This document shows positions 28,468 to 41,832 of a DNA stretch of 64,000 nucleotides, piece by piece. A model generated the notes under the pieces. The model saw only the letters and a program-made list of their open reading frames with translations. It was not told the origin of the DNA and did no database searches. Made by a program: the position numbers and the translations under genes. This DNA comes from Desulfohalovibrio reitneri (GTDB taxonomy: Bacteria > Desulfobacterota > Desulfovibrionia > Desulfovibrionales > Desulfovibrionaceae): positions 2,119,501 to 2,183,500 of the forward strand of contig NZ_JOMJ01000003.1 of assembly GCF_000711295.1 (NCBI RefSeq), in the 5' to 3' direction. How positions within the stretch are numbered: the stretch's first letter is position 1; every line of letters starts with the position of its first letter.

Positions 28468-29370
28468 TTACGCGTTGACCACGGGTTCGTCTTTCTGCGC
28501 GGGTTCCGGCAGACGGCCGGCGGCCAAGCCGGGCTCCGCGCGCATGTTCTTGTCCAGCAGCAGCCGCCTGGGCGCCAAGTCCAGGGCCAGCCCCATGAGC
28601 TGGGGCAGGTAGAGGATGCTCAGGGGCTTCTCCCGGCCCGCCAGGGCGGACCGGCGGGCGGATTCCAGGTTCATCTGGCACAGGGGGCAGACCGTGACCA
28701 CCACGTCCGCGTCCCCAGCCTGGGCCAGTATCTCATCCACCCGGTCCAGGGCCGCCTGACGGTGCGTGACCAAAAGGGACGCGCCGCAGCAGCGGTTGCC
28801 GGCACCCCAGGGGACCACCTCTCCGCCCATGGCCTCCACAAGCGGCTCCATGGACACGGGGTGCTCGGGATCGTCGAACACGGCGTAGGGGCGCAGGGCC
28901 TGGCAGCCGTAGTAGGGGGCCACGCGCAGGCCGTTGAGGGATCGCTTGACGCGGCCGGTAAAGGCCTCCAGCAGGTCGGAGGAGAGCACGTCCAGCAGGT
29001 GTCGCACCCGCACCTCCCCTGACAGTTCCAGCCCTTCTCCGGCCAGGCCGCTGTTAATGCGGTCCAGCATGGCGTGATCGTGGCGGGTCTTTTCGGCCAC
29101 CCGCCGCAGGTTCAGGTAGCAGGCGGAGCAGGGCACCAGGACATCCCAGCCGGGCTCGTCGCGGGCGGCCAGGGCCAGGTTGCGGGCGGGCAGCAGCAGC
29201 CCCATGCTCTCGGAGACCGCGTCCGCGGCCGAGGCCCCGCAGCAGGTCCAGTCCGGGATGTCCTTGAGTTCGGCCCCCAGCACCTCCAGCACGGCCCGGG
29301 TGGAGGCGTCGTACTCCACCGCGCTCTCCTTGAGGGAACAGCCGGGGTAGTAAGCGTAGGTCATGGTCAT
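28468..29370 (-). CDS. hdrB: Heterodisulfide reductase subunit B-like
   Basis: About 300 residues with the two CCG motifs that bind the non-cubane 4Fe-4S cluster: CCGASAADAVSESMG with PCSACYLNLRR, and APYYGCQALRP with NRCCGASLLVTHR and CPLCQMNLE. It opens YAYYPGCSLKESAVEYD, as in HdrB. The first ATG (29370) overlaps the HdrC stop; a second ATG at 29364 has better spacing (8 bp) to the AGGAG box and may be the true start. It should carry the disulfide-reducing site of the complex. Confidence 0.87.
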   Translation of the reverse strand: MTMTYAYYPGCSLKESAVEYDASTRAVLEVLGAELKDIPDWTCCGASAADAVSESMGLLLPARNLALAARDEPGWDVLVPCSACYLNLRRVAEKTRHDHAMLDRINSGLAGEGLELSGEVRVRHLLDVLSSDLLEAFTGRVKRSLNGLRVAPYYGCQALRPYAVFDDPEHPVSMEPLVEAMGGEVVPWGAGNRCCGASLLVTHRQAALDRVDEILAQAGDADVVVTVCPLCQMNLESARRSALAGREKPLSILYLPQLMGLALDLAPRRLLLDKNMRAEPGLAAGRLPEPAQKDEPVVNA

Positions 29371-29900
29371 GACTCCTTCTCCTCTTGGGCGGCGAAGAGG
29401 GTGTCGAGCCTCCCCCGCCGCGCCGTGGACGGGGGATGGAGCTTGCCCTTGGCCAGCATCTTCAGCCCCATGGGCAGGTAGCTCAGTCCCAGGGCCGGGG
29501 AGCGGCGGGCCAGCAGGTAGCGGGTCATGAGGGCGCTCTCCTGCACCCGGCCGTAGCCCCGCACGTTGTCCATGAAGGCGCGGTAGAAGGCGGAGGACTC
29601 CTTGGCGCGGGGGGCGTTGGCCGCCTGGGCGGCGCGCTTGAGCGCGGCGATGGTATCGGTGAGGGGCAGGCCGCGCGGGCAGCGCAGGGTGCAGGCGTAG
29701 CAGGCGGAACACAGCCAAAAGGTGCGGGAGGCGAACAGCTCGTCCCACAGTCCCAGCTGCACCAGCCGCCACATGCGGCGCGGGGTGATGTCCATGTCCG
29801 GCGCGTTGACGCAGGAGGCGGAGCAGGTGCCGCACTGCATGCAGGCGGCCATGGTCTCCCGGATCAGGGCCAGGGGGTCGGTGCGGGCCGCGGTGTTCAT
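29367..29900 (-). CDS. hdrC: Heterodisulfide reductase subunit C-like
   Basis: A 177-residue protein with two 4Fe-4S sites (CMQCGTCSASC, then CSACYACTLRCP). It should carry electrons between the HdrA-type flavoprotein and HdrB. The ATG at 29900 overlaps the stop of the double HdrA, and its own stop overlaps HdrB, so the A-C-B genes are coupled. The C-terminal third is basic and not conserved enough to assign. Confidence 0.86.
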   Translation of the reverse strand: MNTAARTDPLALIRETMAACMQCGTCSASCVNAPDMDITPRRMWRLVQLGLWDELFASRTFWLCSACYACTLRCPRGLPLTDTIAALKRAAQAANAPRAKESSAFYRAFMDNVRGYGRVQESALMTRYLLARRSPALGLSYLPMGLKMLAKGKLHPPSTARRGRLDTLFAAQEEKES

Positions 29901-32900
29901 TTGCAGGTCTCCCCTCGGCCCTGGGCCAGGGCCGCGTCGATGGTTCCCATGACCTGGCGGTCGGTGAAGCCGCGCACGAAGCTGGCGCTGTTGGGGCAGA
30001 CGGCGGCGCAGGAGCCGCAGCCCTGGCAGAGCAGGTCGTCCACCACAACCGTGCCGCTTCGCATGTCCAGACGCCGGGCACCGTAGGGGCAGACCTCGAT
30101 ACAGCGGCCGCAGCGGGAGCAGAGGCTGTGGCGCACCCGCGCGGTGACGCGGGAGCCGGCCAGCCGGGTCTCGGAGAGGATGCGCAGGGCGCGCTGGGCG
30201 GCCGCCTTGGCCGAGGCCACGGTGTCGCGCAGCCCGCCCGGGGCGCGGGCCACTCCGCAGTAGAAGACCCCTTGCTTGAGGCTGTCCACAGGCCGCCATT
30301 TGCTCTCGGCCTCGCGGAAGAAGCCGTCCTGGTCCAATTCCACCCCGAACACCTCGGCGGTCTCCTCGGCCTCGCCCGCCTCCAGGCCGATGGACAGCAC
30401 CAGCAGGTCCGGGTCCATGGCCACGGGGGCGGCCAGGATGGGGTCGGTGTAGGTCAGCCTGGGGCGGCCGTCCTCGAACTCCACCCGGGGCTTGTCGTCC
30501 TGGGTGTAGGGCACGAAGAGCACTCCGGCCTCACGGGCGCGGGTGTAGTACTCCTCCATGAAGCCGGGGGTCATGATGTCACGGTAGAGAACGACCACGG
30601 GCAGGTCGGGCCGCCGCTTCTTGAGCAGCAGGGCGTTCTTCAGGGCCTGCGGGCAGCAGACGCGGCTGCAGTAGTTGCGGTTCTCGTCGCGGGAGCGCCA
30701 GCACTGGATCATGGCCACGCCGGAGAGCCCCGCGAGATCCAGTTCGCCCGAGGCCAGCACCTCCTCCAGGCGGCGCTGGGTCATGACCTTCTTGTGCACG
30801 TCCAGCCCGAAGTCGTGCACCTTCACCTCCCGTCCTCCGGTGGCCAGGATGGTTGCGCCGTGCTCCAGGGGGTAGGTGCCATCGGGGGTGGAGATGAGAC
30901 TCATGAAGTGTCCGGCCCGGCCCGTGGACAGGGCCACCCGCGCCTCAAGGAAAACCCGGATGCGGGGGTGCTTCTCCACCTGTTCAACCAGGTTCTCCAC
31001 GAAGCGCACCGGGTCGTCGCCGGTGAGGGTGGTGTGCAGCTTGTTGGCCAGCCCGCCCAGCCGCTCGGCCTCTTCCACCAGGCAGACGTTGTAGCCGTGG
31101 TCGGCCACGCCCAGGGCGGCGGTCATGCCAGCCACCCCGCCGCCCACCACCAGCGCCTCGCGGGAGACCTCCACCACCGGCTCCACCGGCTCGGGGTCCT
31201 GGTCCAAGAGCCGCACGGCGGCCATGGTCAGGCCGGAGGCCAGCCTGTCGGCCATGGCGGCGGGGTCGCGGGGTTCATCGCTCCCAGCGGCCATGAGCGG
31301 GGAGTAGACGTCAACCACGTCCATGAGGGCGGGGTTGAGATCGGTCTTTTCCGACAACTCGCGCAGCTTGGGCACGTAGGCGTAGGGCATGCACGCGCCG
31401 ATGAGCAGCCGGTTGGGCTTGTGCTCGTCCATCAACTCGGTGATGCGCTCCCAGCCCTCGGCGGTGCAACAGCGGGGCACGGACTCCACCGAGGCCACGC
31501 CGTGTACGGTTCCCAGCCGCTCCGCCAGGCGTCCCATGTCGGCCTCCTCCTCCAGCAGGGGGCAGGCGGTGCACAGGGCGGCCAGCACGCGCGGCCGCTC
31601 GCGGCGCACGTCGCGGTACTCGGGACGTGGTTCGGGCTTGCGCTCCTTGAGGGGGGCGTAGATGTTGATCAGCCGCGAGGCCTCCAGGGCGGCCGCGCCG
31701 GAGAGGATCATGGACTCGGAGATGTCCGCGGGCCAGGCGAAGCTGCCCGCGGCCATGACGCCCATGCGCGAGGTGCGAGAGGGGGTCAGGTTGGCGGTCT
31801 GGCAGAAGCCCCATTCGTTGGTCTCGATGCCGGTCACGCGGGCCAGCTCCTCCATGCCTCTGGGCGGCCGCGCGCCCACGGCCAGCACGGCCATGTCGAA
31901 GCTCTCGGTGACGAGCTTGCCGGTCTCGTCCACGTACTGCATGCGCACCTGGCCGGGGTCGTCCATGGAGGGCAGCAGGGTGTGGATGCGGGCGCGCACG
32001 AAGCGCACGCCGTCGCGATCCCGGGCCTGGTCGCAGTAGCGCTGGAAGTCCTTCCCGTGGGTGCGCACGTCCATGTAGAAGACGGTGGCTTCGGGTTCCT
32101 CCAGGCCAAGCTCCCGCGCCCGTTTCCTGACCAGCCGCGCCTCCTTGAGGGAGGCCAGGCAGCAGAAGGAGGAGCAGAAGCCGCCCTGCCGCTGCACGTC
32201 GCGCGAGCCCACGCACTGCAACCAGGCGATGCGCTTCACCGGGCGGCCGTCGCGGGGGCGGGGCAGGCCGCCGTGGCCGTCGCCGCGCCGCCCGGCGTCC
32301 AGGCCGGTGCCGCTCAGCCAGCGTTCCATCTCCATGGAGGTCAGCACCGCGGGGTGCTGGCCGTAGAGGTAGAAGTCGCCCAGGGCGGCCGGGTCTGTGG
32401 CGGGGTCGAAGAGCTGGAAGCCAGCGGCCAGGATGACCGAGGCCACGTCGATGTCCACCAGCTCGTCGCTGACCAGCCGCATGAACCGCTTTTCCAGGTC
32501 CGGCACCAGCTTGGCCGGGTCTTCGGGGACGACCATGACCTCGGCCGCGCCCTTGTCCAGCATCTCCTTGGCGGCTTCGCCGTTCGCAGTGGCCGCGTCC
32601 GGGGCCAGGAGGACGACAGGGGTGGCCGGAGCCAGCTCCAAGGCCCGGCCGATGATGCGCTCGGCGTCGCCCCTGGGCAGGTCCAGGGAGGCCAGAACCA
32701 GCCCCGCGCCGCCGGACTCCAGGGCGGCCACCGCCTCTTCGGCGTTCGCGGCCGAATGCACCGGGAACTCCCGCTTGCGCAGTCCCGCGGCCAGGGGTTC
32801 GGCCGCTTCGGGGTCGGGGTGGGCCAGCAGCACGGGAAATTCCGCCCGTTTTTCCAGTTGGAAGTCCACCGCGCCGGTGGGGCAGGCTTCGACGCACTCC

Positions 32901-33403
32901 AGGCAGCGCACGCAGTTGTCCAGGTCCACGGTGTAGGCGTTGGGGATGGCCTGGGGCACGGGCAGGTGGATTGCCGCCCGCTCGGACAGCCCGGCGTTGA
33001 ACTCGCTGGGCACCCGCACCGGGCAGACCTCGGAGCAGCGGCCGCAGCCGATGCATTTGTGGGGGTCCACGAAGGGGCTGTGCCGCTTGAGGGTGGCCTG
33101 GAACAGGCCGGGCTCCCCTTCCAGGGCGTGCAACTCGGTGAGGGGCATGACGTCGATGTTGCGGTGGAAGAGCCCCTTGCGCATGCAGAATTGGCTGGAG
33201 CTGTCGCGCTCGGTCAGGGGCAGCATCTTGCACATGCCGCAGTTGTCGCTGGGAAACTGGTGGTCCAGCTGGGTCAGCAACCCGCCCAAGGTGGCCTTGG
33301 CGTCGACGAGGGCCACCTTCTGCCCGGTCTCGGCCAGGCTGAGGGCGGCGTGCATGCCGCCGATGCCGGCCCCGACCACCAATGCGCCGTAACTCTTCTT
33401 CAT
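29897..33403 (-). CDS. hdrA: Double HdrA-like flavoprotein with an internal pseudo-receiver domain
   Basis: A 1168-residue protein, well over the usual HdrA length. The first half has FAD motif VVGAGIGGMHAALSLAE, DNCGMCKM, CIGCGRCSEVCP and CVRCLECVEACP, then LQCVGSRD and CSSFCCLASLKEARL. The second half repeats the plan: VVGGGVAGMTAALGVAD, IQCWRSRDE, CSRVCCPQALK, CSRCGRCIEVCP and CQGCGSCAAVCP. Residues about 190-305 look like a response-regulator receiver (VLLAHPDPEAAE, VLASLDLP, TPVVLLAPDA), but Ser stands where the phospho-Asp should be. Likely role: flavin-based electron bifurcation or confurcation. Confidence 0.85.
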   Translation of the reverse strand: MKKSYGALVVGAGIGGMHAALSLAETGQKVALVDAKATLGGLLTQLDHQFPSDNCGMCKMLPLTERDSSSQFCMRKGLFHRNIDVMPLTELHALEGEPGLFQATLKRHSPFVDPHKCIGCGRCSEVCPVRVPSEFNAGLSERAAIHLPVPQAIPNAYTVDLDNCVRCLECVEACPTGAVDFQLEKRAEFPVLLAHPDPEAAEPLAAGLRKREFPVHSAANAEEAVAALESGGAGLVLASLDLPRGDAERIIGRALELAPATPVVLLAPDAATANGEAAKEMLDKGAAEVMVVPEDPAKLVPDLEKRFMRLVSDELVDIDVASVILAAGFQLFDPATDPAALGDFYLYGQHPAVLTSMEMERWLSGTGLDAGRRGDGHGGLPRPRDGRPVKRIAWLQCVGSRDVQRQGGFCSSFCCLASLKEARLVRKRARELGLEEPEATVFYMDVRTHGKDFQRYCDQARDRDGVRFVRARIHTLLPSMDDPGQVRMQYVDETGKLVTESFDMAVLAVGARPPRGMEELARVTGIETNEWGFCQTANLTPSRTSRMGVMAAGSFAWPADISESMILSGAAALEASRLINIYAPLKERKPEPRPEYRDVRRERPRVLAALCTACPLLEEEADMGRLAERLGTVHGVASVESVPRCCTAEGWERITELMDEHKPNRLLIGACMPYAYVPKLRELSEKTDLNPALMDVVDVYSPLMAAGSDEPRDPAAMADRLASGLTMAAVRLLDQDPEPVEPVVEVSREALVVGGGVAGMTAALGVADHGYNVCLVEEAERLGGLANKLHTTLTGDDPVRFVENLVEQVEKHPRIRVFLEARVALSTGRAGHFMSLISTPDGTYPLEHGATILATGGREVKVHDFGLDVHKKVMTQRRLEEVLASGELDLAGLSGVAMIQCWRSRDENRNYCSRVCCPQALKNALLLKKRRPDLPVVVLYRDIMTPGFMEEYYTRAREAGVLFVPYTQDDKPRVEFEDGRPRLTYTDPILAAPVAMDPDLLVLSIGLEAGEAEETAEVFGVELDQDGFFREAESKWRPVDSLKQGVFYCGVARAPGGLRDTVASAKAAAQRALRILSETRLAGSRVTARVRHSLCSRCGRCIEVCPYGARRLDMRSGTVVVDDLLCQGCGSCAAVCPNSASFVRGFTDRQVMGTIDAALAQGRGETCK

Positions 33404-33413
33404 CTGGGCCTCC

Positions 33414-34565
33414 TCAGGACGTGGCCATGGTCACGTCCGGAAACTCGTCCTCGCGGAAGACGGACAGGGGCGGCGGGGCGTTGAGATCCTGGCCCGCGAC
33501 GTAGTCGAAGGCCCGCTGCACGCCGTCGGCCGTCAGCCGGAACAGTTCCGCCAGGGGGATCTCGTTGGGGCAGGCGTTGGAGCACTGTCCGCAGCCCACG
33601 CAGGCCGCGGACATGTGGGCCATACGGGTCAGGTGGTAGAATACCGTGTCCGTGGGCAGGCGCAGCGCGCCCTCCCGCTGGGCCCGGCCCAGGTACTCCC
33701 ACGGCTTGTGGTCGAAGACGTCGGTGACGAAGACGCACTCGCGGCAGTAGCAGACCGGGCAGGCCACCCGGCAGTTGTAGCAGTTGACGCAGCCCGCCAG
33801 GTACGTCTCCAGGGCGGCGATGTCCGGGGCCTTCCCGCGTGTTTCCTGGAAGATTTCGTCGCGGCGGGCGGTGCGCTCAGCCACAAGCTCGCGCAGGGCG
33901 GCGGCGCGTTCCGTGGGCAGGGGCGCGTCGGACAGGCCGAGCGCGCTGACCACCCGCTCGCCCCGGGCGGAGCCGGAGAGCAGCAGCAGGGCGTCGGCGG
34001 CGTCCACCCCGTACAGGCCGAGATGCAAATCCGCCTCGTCCGCCTCGGGGTGCTCGCACATGCGGCAGGCAGTGGCCATGTCCGGATCCTCGCTCCGCTG
34101 TCCGCCGGGCACGCCCTGGCCCTCCAGGAAACGGCGGGTCAGGTCGTGGGCCTCGACGCCTTCGGCCGCCCGCAGGTACTCGCGGTTGGAATAGGCGCCG
34201 GGGCAGTCGTAGTCGATGAGCACCAGGTTGTCGGTGGTGCCCTGGTTCAGCTTGACCAGCTCCACGAAGGCCCGCGCCTCGCACGGGCGCACCAGGGCGG
34301 CGATGGCGCCGTCGCCCTCGGCGTCCATGGTCAGGCGGCTGAGCAGCTTGGCCGCGTTCATGGGGTAGGCCGGGCTGAAGGGCTCGGCGTAACGCATGTG
34401 CTCGGGGTCGGTGACCAGCTCGGGCATGGGCATGGCCCTTTCCGGGCGGTGCATGGGGGTCAGCACGGCCCGGGCCGCGCCCGTGCGCAGCAGGTCCGCC
34501 AGAAAGCCCCGCATGGAAGCGGAGGGGTCGTTGTCAGTGACCGGTATGCGTGCGGTGGTGGCCAT
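33414..34565 (-). CDS. FdhB/FrhB-like ferredoxin-type Fe-S protein
   Basis: A 383-residue protein. The N-terminal half lacks clear motifs except RPCEARAFVELVKLNQG and VLIDYDCPG, which recall the beta subunits of F420-type formate dehydrogenase or hydrogenase. Cysteine groups follow: CRMCEHPEADEADL, CVNCYNCRVACPVCYCREC and CVGCGQCSNACPNE, enough for at least two 4Fe-4S clusters. It lies between MvhD and the double HdrA and may link the two flavoproteins. The ATG at 34565 lies 16 bp after the MvhD stop. Confidence 0.75.
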   Translation of the reverse strand: MATTARIPVTDNDPSASMRGFLADLLRTGAARAVLTPMHRPERAMPMPELVTDPEHMRYAEPFSPAYPMNAAKLLSRLTMDAEGDGAIAALVRPCEARAFVELVKLNQGTTDNLVLIDYDCPGAYSNREYLRAAEGVEAHDLTRRFLEGQGVPGGQRSEDPDMATACRMCEHPEADEADLHLGLYGVDAADALLLLSGSARGERVVSALGLSDAPLPTERAAALRELVAERTARRDEIFQETRGKAPDIAALETYLAGCVNCYNCRVACPVCYCRECVFVTDVFDHKPWEYLGRAQREGALRLPTDTVFYHLTRMAHMSAACVGCGQCSNACPNEIPLAELFRLTADGVQRAFDYVAGQDLNAPPPLSVFREDEFPDVTMATS

Positions 34566-37114: not shown

Positions 37115-38266
37115 TCAGACTCCCGGATGCCTGTGTTCGCGTCCCGCGGGCGAGAAGGCGTAGGCGGAGACGCCCCGGCCCTCGTCCCGGTTGGCCTGGG
37201 CGTTGTGCCGCTTGGCCGCGGAGTAGCGCCGGATGAGTTCCAGGGCGGTTTCCCGCAGGGGTTTCATCTTGGCCAGCTCCATTTCCTCCAGCACGGTCTC
37301 CCGCGCCTTGCGGTACAGCTCCCGCCCGCGCGGGGTGCGGGTGAGCACCACGGTCCAGCCGTCCGGCGCGCCCAGCCCGCCGAAGGAGATGTCGGCGTAC
37401 TCGGCCGAGTAGTCGGTGCAGTAGGCGCAGGCGCCCCGGGTCATGAAGTCCAGCACGTCCAGGGGCAGGGAGGCGGAGCGGCCGCCCTTGAGGTTGAAGC
37501 GCAGCTCGCGCTTGAGGTTCATGGACTCTAGTTCATCCCAGGCGAACCCGGCCATGTCCTCCAGCCGCTTGCGCTCCACGTCGCCGAAGGTGAAGCTGCG
37601 GGCGCAGAAGAGGCCGAGGTAGTATTTGATCTGTTGCGACGGGGGAATGCCCAGGGTCTCCATCTTGCGCATGGCCAGCACCTGGTCCGGCACGCCCACG
37701 AAGGCCACCCGGTTGAGGTCGCGCTCCTTGAGGCCGCCCAGGCTGGTCAGCGAGGGGCAGTAGGTGGAGTAGGCCCCGCCCAGGGCCACCGTGCCCGAGG
37801 ACTCCTCGTAGGCGGTCCCGGCCGAGAGGATGACGTCCTTGCGGGTGGAGGCCACCCAGGGCCTGCGCTGGAAGGGCCCGGTCTGGCGGGAGACGATGGC
37901 GCTGTCGATGCGCTTGTTGTCCAGCAGATGCAGCAGCATGGCCGTGACCACGCCGCCGTCGGTGCCCAGCTCCCGCAGCACCTCGTCGCGGGCGCGGGCG
38001 ATGTAGAGGGTGTCCACGTGCCCCATGGGCTCGGACCAGTGCAGGCGCTCCCGGGTTTCGGGCAGCAGATCGTCGGTCTCCGGGCAGACCTGGTAACAGA
38101 AGCCGCATTCGATGCACTTGGCCTCGTCGCGGTAGCGGGGGCCGTTGTCCGGGTCCATTTCCAGCGCGCCGTAGTTGATGGCCGAACAGAAGGTCACGCA
38201 GCCGCCGCAGTTGTGGCACAGACCGGGCCGCTGGACTTCATCGACAAGATTCTCGAACGTCTTCAT
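37115..38266 (-). CDS. FrhB-family flavin/Fe-S oxidoreductase (F420 hydrogenase beta-like)
   Basis: A 383-residue protein with two N-terminal 4Fe-4S motifs (CHNCGGCVTFC, then CIECGFCYQVCPE), followed by the FrhB fold: ARARDEVLRELGTDGGVVTAML, then FVGVPDQVLAMRKM and YYLGLFCARSF. FrhB homologues in bacteria without F420 are thought to use FAD and pass electrons to or from ferredoxin or NAD(P)H. It is the first gene of the operon; the ATG at 38266 has GGGAGAA upstream. The longer open frame is not supported by family similarity. Confidence 0.82.
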   Translation of the reverse strand: MKTFENLVDEVQRPGLCHNCGGCVTFCSAINYGALEMDPDNGPRYRDEAKCIECGFCYQVCPETDDLLPETRERLHWSEPMGHVDTLYIARARDEVLRELGTDGGVVTAMLLHLLDNKRIDSAIVSRQTGPFQRRPWVASTRKDVILSAGTAYEESSGTVALGGAYSTYCPSLTSLGGLKERDLNRVAFVGVPDQVLAMRKMETLGIPPSQQIKYYLGLFCARSFTFGDVERKRLEDMAGFAWDELESMNLKRELRFNLKGGRSASLPLDVLDFMTRGACAYCTDYSAEYADISFGGLGAPDGWTVVLTRTPRGRELYRKARETVLEEMELAKMKPLRETALELIRRYSAAKRHNAQANRDEGRGVSAYAFSPAGREHRHPGV

Positions 38267-38542: not shown

Positions 38543-40420
38543 ATGGACGTCCTGCACCGCGCGCTGCTGCGCGCCAGCTTCCACCAGACCCTGCTTGTCG
38601 ACGCCGACGGCCGGGTGCTGGAGGCCAACGACGCGGCCTGCCGTCGTTTGGGAATCCCTCGCGATTCGCTCCTGGACCGCGACGTATTCAGCCTCTTCCC
38701 CGAGCCGGTGGCCAGGGACAGGCGCCGCCATCTGCGCGAGGCGATCGACTCCGGCCAAACGATGACCTTCGAGGATGTCTCGCAGTCCGGGACGCCTTTC
38801 GAGTGCCGCATCCATCCCGTCGCCGACGGCGCTGGGGCGGACATGGCCGTTGTGGCCGTGCGCGACGCGCCCCAGGACCTGCGCGCCGAGGAGTCGCGCT
38901 ACCGGCTGGCCTGCGCCATTGAGCAGGCGGCCGAGGCGGTCATCATCCTCGACGAGGACATGGTGGTGGAGTACGTCAACCAGGCCTTCGAGGCCATGAC
39001 GGGCTACGCCCAGAAGGAAATCAAGGGCCGTTCCATCGAAGTGCTCTACCAAGGCGAGGACCAGGCCGGGGTGCTGGGCAACATCATGGGGTGTCTCGCC
39101 CATGGAGACAAATGGGCCGGACGCACCAACAACACCCGCAAGGACGGCTCTGTCTTTAGCTGCGAGCAGACCATCGGCCGCATCCGGGGCAAGCGCTACC
39201 TGCCCCTGGGCTTCGTCAGCATCTGGCGCGACGTGACCGAAATGCGCGCCCTGGAGCGGCAGCTGCGCCAGGCCCAGAAGATGGAGGCCATCGCCACCCT
39301 GGCCGGGGGCATTGCCCACGACTTCAACAACATTCTCGGCCCCATCATCATCCACGCCGAGCTGGGGCTGGCTCGGGCAGGGCCGGACGATCCCAACCGC
39401 GAATCCCTGGGCGAGATTCTCGACGCCGCCAACCGCGCCCGGGGGCTGGTCAACCACATCCTGGGCCTGAGCCGGGAGCGGGAACGCGACGCTCCGCTGC
39501 CTTTCCGCCTGGGGCAAAGCGTCAAGGAGTGCCTGCGGATCATCCGGCCCGGCCTGCCCTCTTCCATCGCCATCTCCTTCGCCAACGAGGCGGCCGACGA
39601 CACCGTGGTGGCCGATCCCACCCAGATCCATCAGGTGGTCATGAACCTCTGCACCAACGCGGCCCAGGCCATGGGGGAGACGGGCAGCCTGGACCTGCGC
39701 CTGGACCGGGTGGAGGTGGGAGAGGACCGCAGCCCCGGCGAGGCCGAACTGCCGCCCGGCTCCTATCTGCGGCTGCGGGTGGCGGACACCGGCCGGGGCA
39801 TCGCGCCGGAACATTTGGAGCGAGTATTCGACCCCTTCTTCACCACCAAGCGGGCGGGCGTGGGCACAGGGCTGGGGTTGACCGTCATGCGCGGCATCGT
39901 CTCTTCCATGGGAGGAGAGGTGCGGCTGTCCAGCGAGGTGGGACGGGGCACAGTGTTCGACGTCTACCTGCCCCGGCCCGCGGCGCCGGTGCGCCCCCTT
40001 GAGCCGCCTCCGAGGGAATCCGGGGAGGCGCCGGGGCGGCCGGGAGTGCTGCTTGTCTGCGGGGACGAGGTTTCGGCCAGGGGGGTGGCCTCCGCCCTGG
40101 AGCAGCTGGGTTACGCCGCGCGCGTCTGCGGCAACGGGTACGAGGCCCTGGCCCGGTTCCGCCAGGACCCGGACGCGGTGGAGCTGGCCATGGTGGACGT
40201 GGCCACCCCGGAAATGCGGGCCATGGAGCTGGTGCGGGAACTGCGCCTGACCCGGCCGGACCTGCCGGTGGTGGTGCTCTCCAGCTTCACCGAGGTCTTC
40301 CCCCCGGACCGGGCAGAGGCCACCGGGGTGCGAGCCTTTCTGCGCACGCCCTGCTGCCTGGATGAACTGGAAGGGGTGCTGCGGCGGGCGGCGCCCTTGC
40401 GGACGACGGAGGAGGCGTGA
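38543..40420 (+). CDS. PAS-domain hybrid sensor histidine kinase
   Basis: A 625-residue soluble kinase with no membrane helix, so it senses an internal signal. Order: PAS 1 (about 10-110), PAS 2 (about 118-235, VNQAFEAMTGYAQKEIKGRS), HisKA with the H-box GGIAHDFNNIL, and HATPase with N-box QVVMNLCTNAAQAM, DTGRGIAPEH and GTGLGLT. A C-terminal receiver (about 505-620) has VELAMVDVATPEM. The ATG at 38543 follows GGAGG. It overlaps the downstream regulator (ATGA). Divergent position suggests control of the hdr operon. Confidence 0.88.
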   Translation: MDVLHRALLRASFHQTLLVDADGRVLEANDAACRRLGIPRDSLLDRDVFSLFPEPVARDRRRHLREAIDSGQTMTFEDVSQSGTPFECRIHPVADGAGADMAVVAVRDAPQDLRAEESRYRLACAIEQAAEAVIILDEDMVVEYVNQAFEAMTGYAQKEIKGRSIEVLYQGEDQAGVLGNIMGCLAHGDKWAGRTNNTRKDGSVFSCEQTIGRIRGKRYLPLGFVSIWRDVTEMRALERQLRQAQKMEAIATLAGGIAHDFNNILGPIIIHAELGLARAGPDDPNRESLGEILDAANRARGLVNHILGLSRERERDAPLPFRLGQSVKECLRIIRPGLPSSIAISFANEAADDTVVADPTQIHQVVMNLCTNAAQAMGETGSLDLRLDRVEVGEDRSPGEAELPPGSYLRLRVADTGRGIAPEHLERVFDPFFTTKRAGVGTGLGLTVMRGIVSSMGGEVRLSSEVGRGTVFDVYLPRPAAPVRPLEPPPRESGEAPGRPGVLLVCGDEVSARGVASALEQLGYAARVCGNGYEALARFRQDPDAVELAMVDVATPEMRAMELVRELRLTRPDLPVVVLSSFTEVFPPDRAEATGVRAFLRTPCCLDELEGVLRRAAPLRTTEEA

Positions 40421-41832
40421 TGGCCGGGGTGCTCATCGTGGACGACGACATGCAGCTGTGCAAGGCGCTCGGCAAGGTCATGGAGAGCATGGGGCACAGC
40501 GCGGCCACGGCCGGATTCCTCTCCCAGGGTCTGGACCTTTGCCGCCGCCGCTCTTTCGACGTGGTCATCCTGGATATCCGCCTGCCCGACGGCAGCGGCC
40601 TGGACGCCCTGCCCGCCTTCCGCGAGTGCCCCGACAAGCCGGAGGTCATCATCCTCTCCGGCTCCTCCGATCCGGACGGCGCGGAGCTGGCCATACGCAG
40701 CGGGGCCTGGAGCTACATCCCCAAGCCGCCCACCCTGAGCAAGATCCGGCTGCCGGTGGAGCGGGCCATCGAGTACCGCCGCCACAAGCTCAGCCGCAGC
40801 GCCGAGTTCAGCCTGGACCGCTGCGGCATCGTGGGCCAGAGCCGCGCCCTGACCGCCTGCCTGGACCAGGTGGCCCAGGCCGCCCGAAGCGACGCCAACG
40901 TGCTGGTCACGGGCGAGACGGGCACCGGCAAGGAGCTCATCGCCCGCGCCCTGCACGTCAACAGCGCCCGGGCCAAGGGGCCGTTCGTGGTGGTCGACTG
41001 CGCCTCCCTGCCGGACAACCTGGTGGAGAGCACCCTCTTCGGCCACCAGCGCGGTGCCTTCACCGGAGCTGACCGCGCCTCGCCGGGCCTCATCCGCGAG
41101 GCGCACCACGGCACCCTCTTCCTGGACGAAATTGGCGAGTTGCCCCTGGTCATGCAAAAGGCCTTTTTGCGCGTGCTGCAGGAGCGCCGCTACCGTCCAG
41201 TGGGCGGCGGGCCGGAGGTGGAGAGCGACTTCCGCCTGGTGGCGGCCACCAACCGCGACCTGGACGAGATGGTTTCCCGCTGGGCCTTCCGCCAGGACCT
41301 GCTCTTCCGGGTTCGCACCATCCTGGTGGAGGTTCCCCCGTTGCGCGAGCGGGGCGGCGACGTGCGCCCGCTGGCCGAACACGCCCTGGCCAGGATGCCC
41401 AACGGCCAGGGCAAGCACCTCTCACCGGAGTTTCTGGAGGCGCTGGGCCGCTACCACTGGCCCGGCAACGTGCGGGAACTGATGAACGCGGTGCAGAGCG
41501 CGGCTGCGGCTTCCGGCGGGCAGGCGGTGCTTTCTCCTGCCCACCTGCCCATGGACATCCGGGTCCACCTGGCCCGCACTTCCATTTCCGGCGGCGGACG
41601 GTCGGAGGAGGAGGGCGGCCCGGGCGAGCCCGAGTCACTGCCCACCCTGCGCGAGACGCGGGAGCGGGCCATGGAGGAGGTGGAACGGCAATACCTCCTC
41701 GACCTGCTGGCCGCCACCGGCGGCGTGGTGGAGGAGTCCTGCCGCGTCTCCGGCCTGTCCCGGGCGCGCTTCTACGCCCTGCTCAAGAAATACGGCGTCT
41801 CCCGCAAGGCCTTCCGGGAGCCGGTGGACTAG
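40417..41832 (+). CDS. NtrC-family sigma-54-dependent response regulator
   Basis: A 471-residue activator: receiver (VLIVDDDMQLCKAL, phospho-Asp in VVILDIRLPDG), then an AAA+ domain with Walker A GETGTGKE, the sigma-54 contact loop GAFTGA, Walker B GTLFLDEIGEL and a WPGNVRELMN motif. A Fis-type helix-turn-helix follows at the end (SCRVSGLSRARFYALLKKYG). Presence of GAFTGA means it should activate sigma-54 promoters. Partner of the preceding kinase. Its TAG stop shares the palindrome CTAG with the convergent dctM stop. Confidence 0.9.
   Translation: MMAGVLIVDDDMQLCKALGKVMESMGHSAATAGFLSQGLDLCRRRSFDVVILDIRLPDGSGLDALPAFRECPDKPEVIILSGSSDPDGAELAIRSGAWSYIPKPPTLSKIRLPVERAIEYRRHKLSRSAEFSLDRCGIVGQSRALTACLDQVAQAARSDANVLVTGETGTGKELIARALHVNSARAKGPFVVVDCASLPDNLVESTLFGHQRGAFTGADRASPGLIREAHHGTLFLDEIGELPLVMQKAFLRVLQERRYRPVGGGPEVESDFRLVAATNRDLDEMVSRWAFRQDLLFRVRTILVEVPPLRERGGDVRPLAEHALARMPNGQGKHLSPEFLEALGRYHWPGNVRELMNAVQSAAAASGGQAVLSPAHLPMDIRVHLARTSISGGGRSEEEGGPGEPESLPTLRETRERAMEEVERQYLLDLLAATGGVVEESCRVSGLSRARFYALLKKYGVSRKAFREPVD

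What the first reader, a model, noticed from the sequence alone, without database searches (positions are those of the whole stretch)
29897..33403. Giant double HdrA with an embedded receiver-like domain lacking the phospho-aspartate
Two complete HdrA-like flavin/Fe-S modules are fused, and residues about 190-305 look like a response-regulator receiver inserted after the ferredoxin motifs of the first module. Ser replaces the phospho-Asp (VLASLDLP). A signalling fold inside a bifurcating flavoprotein could be an allosteric or docking domain. I know of no described role for this arrangement.
Basis: partly seen in the sequence, partly recalled or inferred. Interest (0 to 1): 0.66.

Follow-up and report, generated by a model that had tools for sequence, protein, structure and literature searches.

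The report
Receiver domain built into fused HdrA
A flavin/iron-sulfur protein that sulfate-reducing bacteria probably use to split electrons carries, inside its sequence, a signal-receiver domain like those of bacterial two-component systems; the domain is intact in dozens of relatives, often next to a sensor-kinase gene, but has lost its phosphorylation site in this bacterium's order, so the enzyme may be, or once was, switched directly by a sensor kinase.

Summary
Confirmed and extended. The ORF (minus strand, 33403-29897, 1168 aa) is a fused double HdrA. Residues ~188-312 form a real receiver fold: Pfam PF00072 E=1e-6, AlphaFold pLDDT 93, Foldseek PDB hits all receivers. Ser239 replaces the phospho-Asp, and none of the canonical catalytic residues remains. 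The two HdrA modules are not both complete: they are complementary halves (module 1 has Cys197 and the inserted ferredoxin; module 2 has the N-terminal domain and C-terminal ferredoxin), a known kind of HdrA fusion.

Outside Desulfovibrionales, 48 of 49 keep every catalytic residue (PF00072 E about 1e-30) under stronger purifying selection than the enzyme body, and 20 of 37 have a co-directional histidine kinase just downstream. In Desulfovibrionales (this window) the receiver decayed, selection relaxed and no kinase follows, yet the fold persists with new conserved residues.

Best reading: an ancestral kinase-controlled switch inside a putative electron-bifurcating complex, now a phosphorylation-independent pseudo-receiver here. 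Phosphorylation and gating are inferred, not shown. I found no published description in the open-access library searched.

The parts
29897..33403 (-). Fused double HdrA with embedded receiver, 1168 aa (stop codon 29897-29899)
31619..33403 (-). Module 1 (residues 1-595): thioredoxin-reductase-like FAD domain, Cys197-equivalent C58, inserted 2x[4Fe-4S] ferredoxin; no N-terminal domain, no C-terminal ferredoxin
   Evidence: alignment to PDB 5odc_A and 9sfi_A; invariant Cys
33230..33232 (-). C58 = Cys197 of methanogen HdrA (the trans ligand of the N-terminal-domain cluster); Sec in insert-less double HdrA of the same order
32858..33076 (-). Inserted ferredoxin of module 1 (residues 110-182, two 4Fe-4S motifs)
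32468..32842 (-). Embedded receiver-like domain (residues 188-312), between the inserted ferredoxin and the return strand of the FAD domain
32687..32689 (-). S239, at the phospho-Asp position
29900..31618 (-). Module 2 (residues 596-1168): N-terminal Fe-S domain (603-740; invariant C611, C646, C671), FAD domain without Cys197 or inserted ferredoxin, C-terminal ferredoxin (1088-1145)
37115..38266 (-). FrhB/FdhB-type subunit, first gene of the apparent operon
   Evidence: PF04432/PF04422
35061..37112 (-). Single complete HdrA, 683 aa
34582..35058 (-). MvhD/FlpD
   Evidence: PF02662 E=1.4e-53
33414..34565 (-). FdhB-like Fe-S subunit, 383 aa
   Evidence: phmmer to 7bkb_E formate dehydrogenase beta, E=2e-29
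29367..29900 (-). HdrC, overlapping the fused HdrA stop codon
   Evidence: TIGR03290; PF13183
28468..29370 (-). HdrB (CCG domains)
   Evidence: PF02754; TIGR03288
27516..28451 (-). Tandem universal-stress-protein gene, conserved after HdrB in Desulfovibrionales
   Evidence: PF00582
26126..27460 (-). HdrD-like Fe-S/CCG protein of HmcF/TmcB/DsrK type
38543..40420 (+). Divergent PAS-PAS histidine kinase with C-terminal receiver (neighbour; regulator candidate, not a member of the complex)
40417..41832 (+). NtrC-type sigma-54 response regulator paired with that kinase (neighbour)

Best explanation
The protein is the large subunit of a predicted cytoplasmic electron-bifurcating Hdr complex (HdrA1-MvhD-FdhB-like-fused HdrA-HdrC-HdrB). 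Its two halves act as a built-in asymmetric HdrA dimer in which C58 of half 1 completes the cluster of the N-terminal domain in half 2. In the ancestor of the insert-bearing clade a whole NtrC/AtoC-like phospho-receiver was inserted at the hinge between the inserted ferredoxin (the proposed exit to soluble ferredoxin) and the FAD domain. There a partner histidine kinase phosphorylates the Asp, and the resulting movement of the receiver's alpha4-beta5-alpha5 face, which runs straight into a strand of the FAD domain, opens, closes or re-docks the ferredoxin arm. That makes the enzyme a response regulator whose output is electron transfer. In Desulfovibrionales, including this window, the phosphorylation site was lost; the domain is now a pseudo-receiver (here aspartate-less) that works without phosphorylation, as a fixed spacer or docking surface. 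Shown by computation: fold, position, residue loss, shared origin, selection contrast, kinase neighbourhood. Inferred: phosphotransfer, gating, and the electron donors and acceptors.
For: Fold. Same insertion point in all full-length orthologues: (24 of 120 genomes of the order, 10 of 31 genera). Canonical receiver in relatives: PF00072 E=1e-29 to 9e-34 for L054, L061, L069, L081; DD, D, T, K all kept in 48 of 49 non-Desulfovibrionales. One clade of insert-bearing proteins (SH-aLRT 98) with the decayed forms as one subclade (100), from a tree built without the insert. Mean pairwise identity of the insert is 70% in the canonical set (mod1 N-part 71%, mod2 54%) against 40% in Desulfovibrionales (74%, 61%). 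dN/dS of insert below flanks in 10 of 10 canonical pairs; above flanks in all 8 computable Desulfovibrionales pairs, but below 1. Co-directional histidine kinase within 4.6 kb downstream: 20 of 37 canonical, 0 of 18 decayed; kinase domains confirmed by Pfam. Other receiver fusions at these loci: REC-REC-HdrA in L066, Usp-REC-Usp in L090; stand-alone intact receiver in 6 of 18 Desulfovibrionales operons. New alpha5/linker conservation in Desulfovibrionales (K305, R309, S312 100%). Complementary Cys pattern; Chadwick et al. PMC9012536.
Against: No experiment shows phosphorylation, complex formation or bifurcation. Kinase adjacency is not independent across related loci and could reflect ordinary transcriptional control: NtrC-type regulators are also nearby. 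17 of 37 canonical loci have no co-directional kinase in that range. Placement of the receiver against the FAD comes from a predicted model whose coordinates I could not measure. The direction of the switch (on/off, which arm moves) is unknown. The order of branching within the canonical forms rests on weak support (17).
Confidence: 0.55

Rival explanations
1. Reverse signalling (trigger enzyme): the HdrA-borne receiver does not control the enzyme; the redox state of HdrA changes how well the receiver competes for phosphoryl groups or docks on the kinase, so the enzyme reports cell redox state to the kinase/NtrC pair that controls the operon.
For: Sigma-54 regulators and kinases often flank the operon, including the divergent kinase + NtrC pair in the window. 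The receiver sits beside redox centres.
Against: The downstream kinases in L065, L071-L073, L077 and L080 have no further response regulator next to them on the same strand. No sequence feature supports a redox-to-receiver coupling in that direction.
Confidence: 0.15
2. Assembly element: the receiver fold is used only as a dimerisation or subunit-docking surface, with phosphorylation irrelevant in all lineages.
For: The fold persists in Desulfovibrionales without the active site and with newly conserved alpha5/linker residues.
Against: All six checked receiver residues are intact in 48 of 49 canonical members, under dN/dS of 0.00-0.09, lower than the enzyme body. A pure spacer would not need DD, D, T and K.
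Confidence: 0.2
3. Decaying passenger: in Desulfovibrionales the insert has no function and is being lost.
For: Identity 40%, raised dN/dS (0.16-0.66), catalytic residues scattered away.
Against: No stop, frameshift or deletion of the domain in the full-length Desulfovibrionales orthologues seen; dN/dS stays below 1; R186, R253, E256, P293, K305, R309 and S312 are invariant in the 22 compared; predicted fold pLDDT 93.
Confidence: 0.1

Closest known systems
Fused/tandem heterodimeric HdrA (HdrA3, HdrA4 of ANME archaea; HdrA of the Moorella MetFV-HdrABC-MvhD complex), Chadwick et al. 2022 PMC9012536
   Same: Two HdrA modules in one chain with complementary presence of the N-terminal domain and Cys197, predicted to be their own dimer partners.
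   Different: Module order is reversed here (Cys197 half first, N-terminal-domain half second), and no receiver is described there.
HdrL / HdrA9-11 with NfnB-like insertion (Strittmatter 2009 PMC2702500; Chadwick 2022)
   Same: A large foreign domain inserted near the inserted ferredoxin of HdrA.
   Different: That insert is a GltD/NfnB flavoprotein between the two Fe-S motifs; here it is a receiver after the second motif. In canonical loci an NfnB-insert HdrA is the upstream partner gene.
Bacterial pseudo-receivers / aspartate-less receivers (J Bacteriol 2025, PMC12632262)
   Same: Receiver fold lacking catalytic residues; the window domain fits the stated definition of an ALR.
   Different: Those discussed are response regulators with ordinary output domains; here the domain lies inside a multi-cofactor redox enzyme and its relatives are still canonical.
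NtrC/AtoC/ZraR-type receivers
   Same: Best sequence matches of the canonical insert (NCBIfam ZraR, AtoC, NtrX).
   Different: No AAA+ or DNA-binding output; the flanking chain is HdrA.
Methanogen HdrA (PDB 5odc, 7bkb, 8rvu, 9sfi)
   Same: Domain types, cluster and FAD motifs.
   Different: Single symmetric chain, no receiver, dimerises between two copies.

Membership tests
Receiver domain (PF00072) | (beta-alpha)5 fold | tested here: met
Receiver domain (PF00072) | Pfam curated score 30.2 bits | tested here: inconclusive
   window insert 29.3 bits excised, just below; orthologues L054, L061, L069, L081 103-116 bits
Catalytically competent receiver | DD, D, T/S and K residues in the window protein | tested here: not met
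   H195, P196, S239, A267, V292
Catalytically competent receiver | DD, D, T/S and K in non-Desulfovibrionales orthologues | tested here: met
   48 of 49
Catalytically competent receiver | Accepts phosphoryl groups from a histidine kinase | not testable with these tools
   only adjacency of kinases: 20 of 37 canonical loci
Aspartate-less pseudo-receiver (ALR; definition in PMC12632262) | Receiver homologue lacking the phospho-Asp | tested here: met
   S239
HdrA | FAD GxGxxG motif, Cys/CxxxCC cluster motif, 4Fe-4S ferredoxin motifs | tested here: met
HdrA of methanogens (NCBIfam equivalogs) | Curated score cut-offs (1100-1400 bits) | tested here: not met
   618.7, 481.5 and 461.7 bits: an HdrA-like protein, not the methanogen equivalog
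Fused heterodimeric HdrA | One module has the N-terminal domain without Cys197, the other Cys197 without the N-terminal domain | tested here: met
   alignment to 5odc_A; invariant C58 / C611, C646, C671
Electron-bifurcating Hdr complex | HdrB, HdrC and MvhD partners encoded alongside | tested here: met
Electron-bifurcating Hdr complex | Measured flavin-based bifurcation | not testable with these tools
   biochemistry needed

The most novel reading that the evidence does not exclude
In Desulfobacterales and Syntrophobacterales a histidine kinase directly phosphorylates the catalytic subunit of a flavin-based electron-bifurcating complex, making electron bifurcation itself the output of a two-component system, while Desulfovibrionales have converted that switch into a phosphorylation-independent pseudo-receiver. 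The two lineages would be a natural before/after pair for how a pseudo-receiver arises inside an enzyme.
Probability: 0.42. Interest if true: 0.86.

Novelty: new variant of a known kind. Interest (0 to 1): 0.72.

Why it matters
Electron-bifurcating Hdr complexes set the ferredoxin budget of many anaerobes, but direct sensory control of such an enzyme was not found in any paper searched. If the receiver works, sulfate reducers can retune bifurcation quickly without changing transcription. The clade also holds intact and decayed versions of the same domain in the same enzyme, which makes the open question of what pseudo-receivers do testable by swapping domains between lineages.

Tried and rejected
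(1) Chance resemblance or another Rossmann-like fold: rejected by Foldseek and by canonical orthologues. (2) NfnB/GltD-type insertion as in HdrL: rejected; that insert is at a different point and occurs in L009/L010 and in the upstream HdrA of canonical loci. (3) Recent capture of the receiver from the neighbouring hybrid kinase or NtrC gene of the window: neither was the best match of any insert; nearest receivers among the loci were Usp-REC-Usp (L090) and NtrC-type regulators. (4) Usp-REC-Usp as a general donor: found only in L090 among 12 genomes, so more likely a copy of the HdrA-borne receiver. (5) Loss of Asp as the defining feature: rejected. (6) Two translated fragments were out of frame (MvhD, HdrC) and were redone; one multiple alignment failed on strand and was redone. 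(7) Literature for a receiver in HdrA: none found in ten searches; subscription papers are not in the library.
Full report
OBSERVATION. The finding is an ORF of 1168 aa on the minus strand, 33403 to 29897. Pfam finds duplicated FAD and 4Fe-4S domains and one Response_reg match at residues 191-300: E=3.5e-5 in the whole protein, 1e-6 when excised, 29.3 bits against a curated cut-off of 30.2. AlphaFold2 on residues 182-312 with 28 sequences gives mean pLDDT 93.4 and strand/helix order b1a1b2a2b3a3b4a4b5a5. Foldseek against the PDB returns 380 matches at E<=0.001, and the top 50 are all receivers or response regulators (best 3crn, TM 0.79/0.82). The full-length model (55 sequences, pLDDT 86.8, pTM 0.88) keeps the same fold and shows alpha5 (296-312) running directly into strand 314-325 of the FAD domain.

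THE ENZYME BODY. Alignment to methanogen HdrA 5odc_A places C58 on Cys197. Module 1 has Cys197 and the inserted ferredoxin but no N-terminal domain and no C-terminal ferredoxin. Module 2 has the N-terminal domain (three invariant Cys: 611, 646, 671) and the C-terminal ferredoxin but no Cys197 and no inserted ferredoxin. This is the complementary pattern that Chadwick et al. (PMC9012536) described for fused and tandem HdrA, where Cys197 of one copy ligates the N-terminal cluster of the other; the module order is reversed here. So the modules are not two complete HdrA but one asymmetric dimer in one chain. The apparent operon (38266 to 26126, minus strand) encodes FrhB-like, HdrA, MvhD, FdhB-like, fused HdrA, HdrC, HdrB, a tandem Usp protein and an HmcF/TmcB/DsrK-type protein.

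RELATIVES. Five complete orthologues and one cut off by a contig end came from 28 relatives, 53-57% identical, all with the insert. Across 120 genomes of the order, 24 genomes in 10 of 31 genera have it, and every match runs through the insert. A scan of 84,980 species genomes gave 107 relatives, of which 80 loci were kept. They lie almost wholly in Desulfobacterota (Desulfovibrionales, Desulfobacterales, Syntrophobacterales), with one MAG labelled Latescibacterota and one labelled Myxococcales. Seven kept loci (L102-L108) are sister double HdrA with the same CGMC-type motif and no insert, and 14 further insert-less double HdrA from the window's order carry an in-frame TGA (probable Sec) at the Cys197 position; L009 and L010, also Sec, have the NfnB-type insert instead.

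THE RECEIVER IS CANONICAL ELSEWHERE. In 48 of 49 insert-bearing loci outside Desulfovibrionales all six checked positions (DD, D, T, Y, K) are intact, with PF00072 E-values of 1e-29 to 9e-34 in four tested. In 29 Desulfovibrionales sequences (some near-duplicates) plus 10 more, none keeps the full set; the Asp column holds D, G or S. A tree built without the insert puts all insert-bearing proteins in one clade (SH-aLRT 98) and the decayed ones in one subclade (100); support for the deepest splits among canonical forms is weak. Insert and module 2 identities correlate across pairs (Spearman 0.61), consistent with joint inheritance. Selection differs sharply. Mean insert identity is 70.0% in the canonical set, as high as module 1's N-part (70.9%) and above module 2 (54.4%), but 40.3% in Desulfovibrionales against 73.7% and 60.9%. 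Insert dN/dS is lower than the flanks in all 10 canonical pairs (0.00-0.09 against 0.10-0.27) and higher in all 8 computable Desulfovibrionales pairs (0.16-0.66 against 0.09-0.33), still below 1. In Desulfovibrionales, R253, E256, K305, R309 and S312, mostly variable in the canonical set, are invariant in the 22 compared, which suggests a new role rather than mere decay.

PARTNERS. Of 37 canonical loci with at least 2.5 kb downstream, 20 have a co-directional histidine kinase starting within 4.6 kb of the fused HdrA, against 0 of 18 Desulfovibrionales loci (Fisher 4.6e-5, not corrected for shared ancestry). The kinases are of several kinds: membrane HAMP-PAS-HisKA-HATPase (~760 aa), soluble PAS kinases (~375 aa), GAF kinases and REC-PAS kinases. 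In L074 and L098 the kinase ORF overlaps the end of hdrB. All 18 Desulfovibrionales loci have the Usp gene instead, and six of them add a stand-alone intact receiver right after it. Two further fusions point the same way: L066 encodes a REC-REC-HdrA protein in the same locus, and L090 a Usp-REC-Usp protein whose receiver is 55-68% identical to the HdrA-borne ones of the canonical set.

MECHANISM. Shown: a canonical receiver is embedded at the junction of the inserted ferredoxin and the FAD domain in one branch, and a pseudo-receiver (aspartate-less in the window) at the same point in the other. Inferred from known receiver and HdrA biology: kinase-driven phosphorylation moves the receiver's signalling face and with it the ferredoxin arm that passes electrons to soluble ferredoxin (proposed route: Chadwick et al.). 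In the window's lineage the domain must act without phosphorylation, most simply as a fixed docking or spacer element. Rival readings are a trigger enzyme that reports redox state to the kinase, a purely structural element in all lineages, or a functionless remnant; each is weighed in its field.

NOVELTY. Fused HdrA, HdrA with inserted enzyme domains, receivers and pseudo-receivers are each known. A receiver inside a putative electron-bifurcating flavoprotein was not found in ten full-text searches of 5.39 million open papers; subscription papers were not searched, and domain databases may already list the architecture without comment. I rate it a new variant of a known kind.

Noticed in passing
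L009-L022, L027, L028, position equivalent to window 33230-33232: Double HdrA without the receiver in the window's order carry an in-frame TGA (probable selenocysteine) exactly at the Cys197 position in all 16 sequences compared; all receiver-bearing ones have Cys.
   Followed up: partly
window 33185-33232 (residues 58-73): The insert-bearing clade has a ~10-residue extension after Cys197 with an additional Cys (C73) and residues R66, S70, R75, G77, H80 invariant in 55 sequences; possible extra ligand.
   Followed up: no
L066:18828-20567: Protein with two N-terminal receivers followed by the HdrA N-terminal and FAD regions: an independent receiver-HdrA fusion in the same locus.
   Followed up: partly
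L090:14804-16228: Usp-REC-Usp protein after hdrB; its receiver resembles the HdrA-borne receivers more than any other at these loci, suggesting the module was copied between subunits.
   Followed up: partly
L029-L033, L035: Stand-alone ~130 aa receiver gene directly after the Usp gene in operons whose HdrA-borne receiver is degenerate.
   Followed up: partly
L054:4644-8042 and equivalents: The upstream HdrA of canonical loci is the NfnB-insert (HdrL) type, whereas the window has a plain HdrA plus a separate FrhB gene, so the electron donor probably differs between lineages.
   Followed up: partly
L062 (residues at phospho-Asp column): One non-Desulfovibrionales sequence has lost only the phospho-Asp (G) while keeping DD, T and K: a second, independent start of decay.
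   Followed up: no
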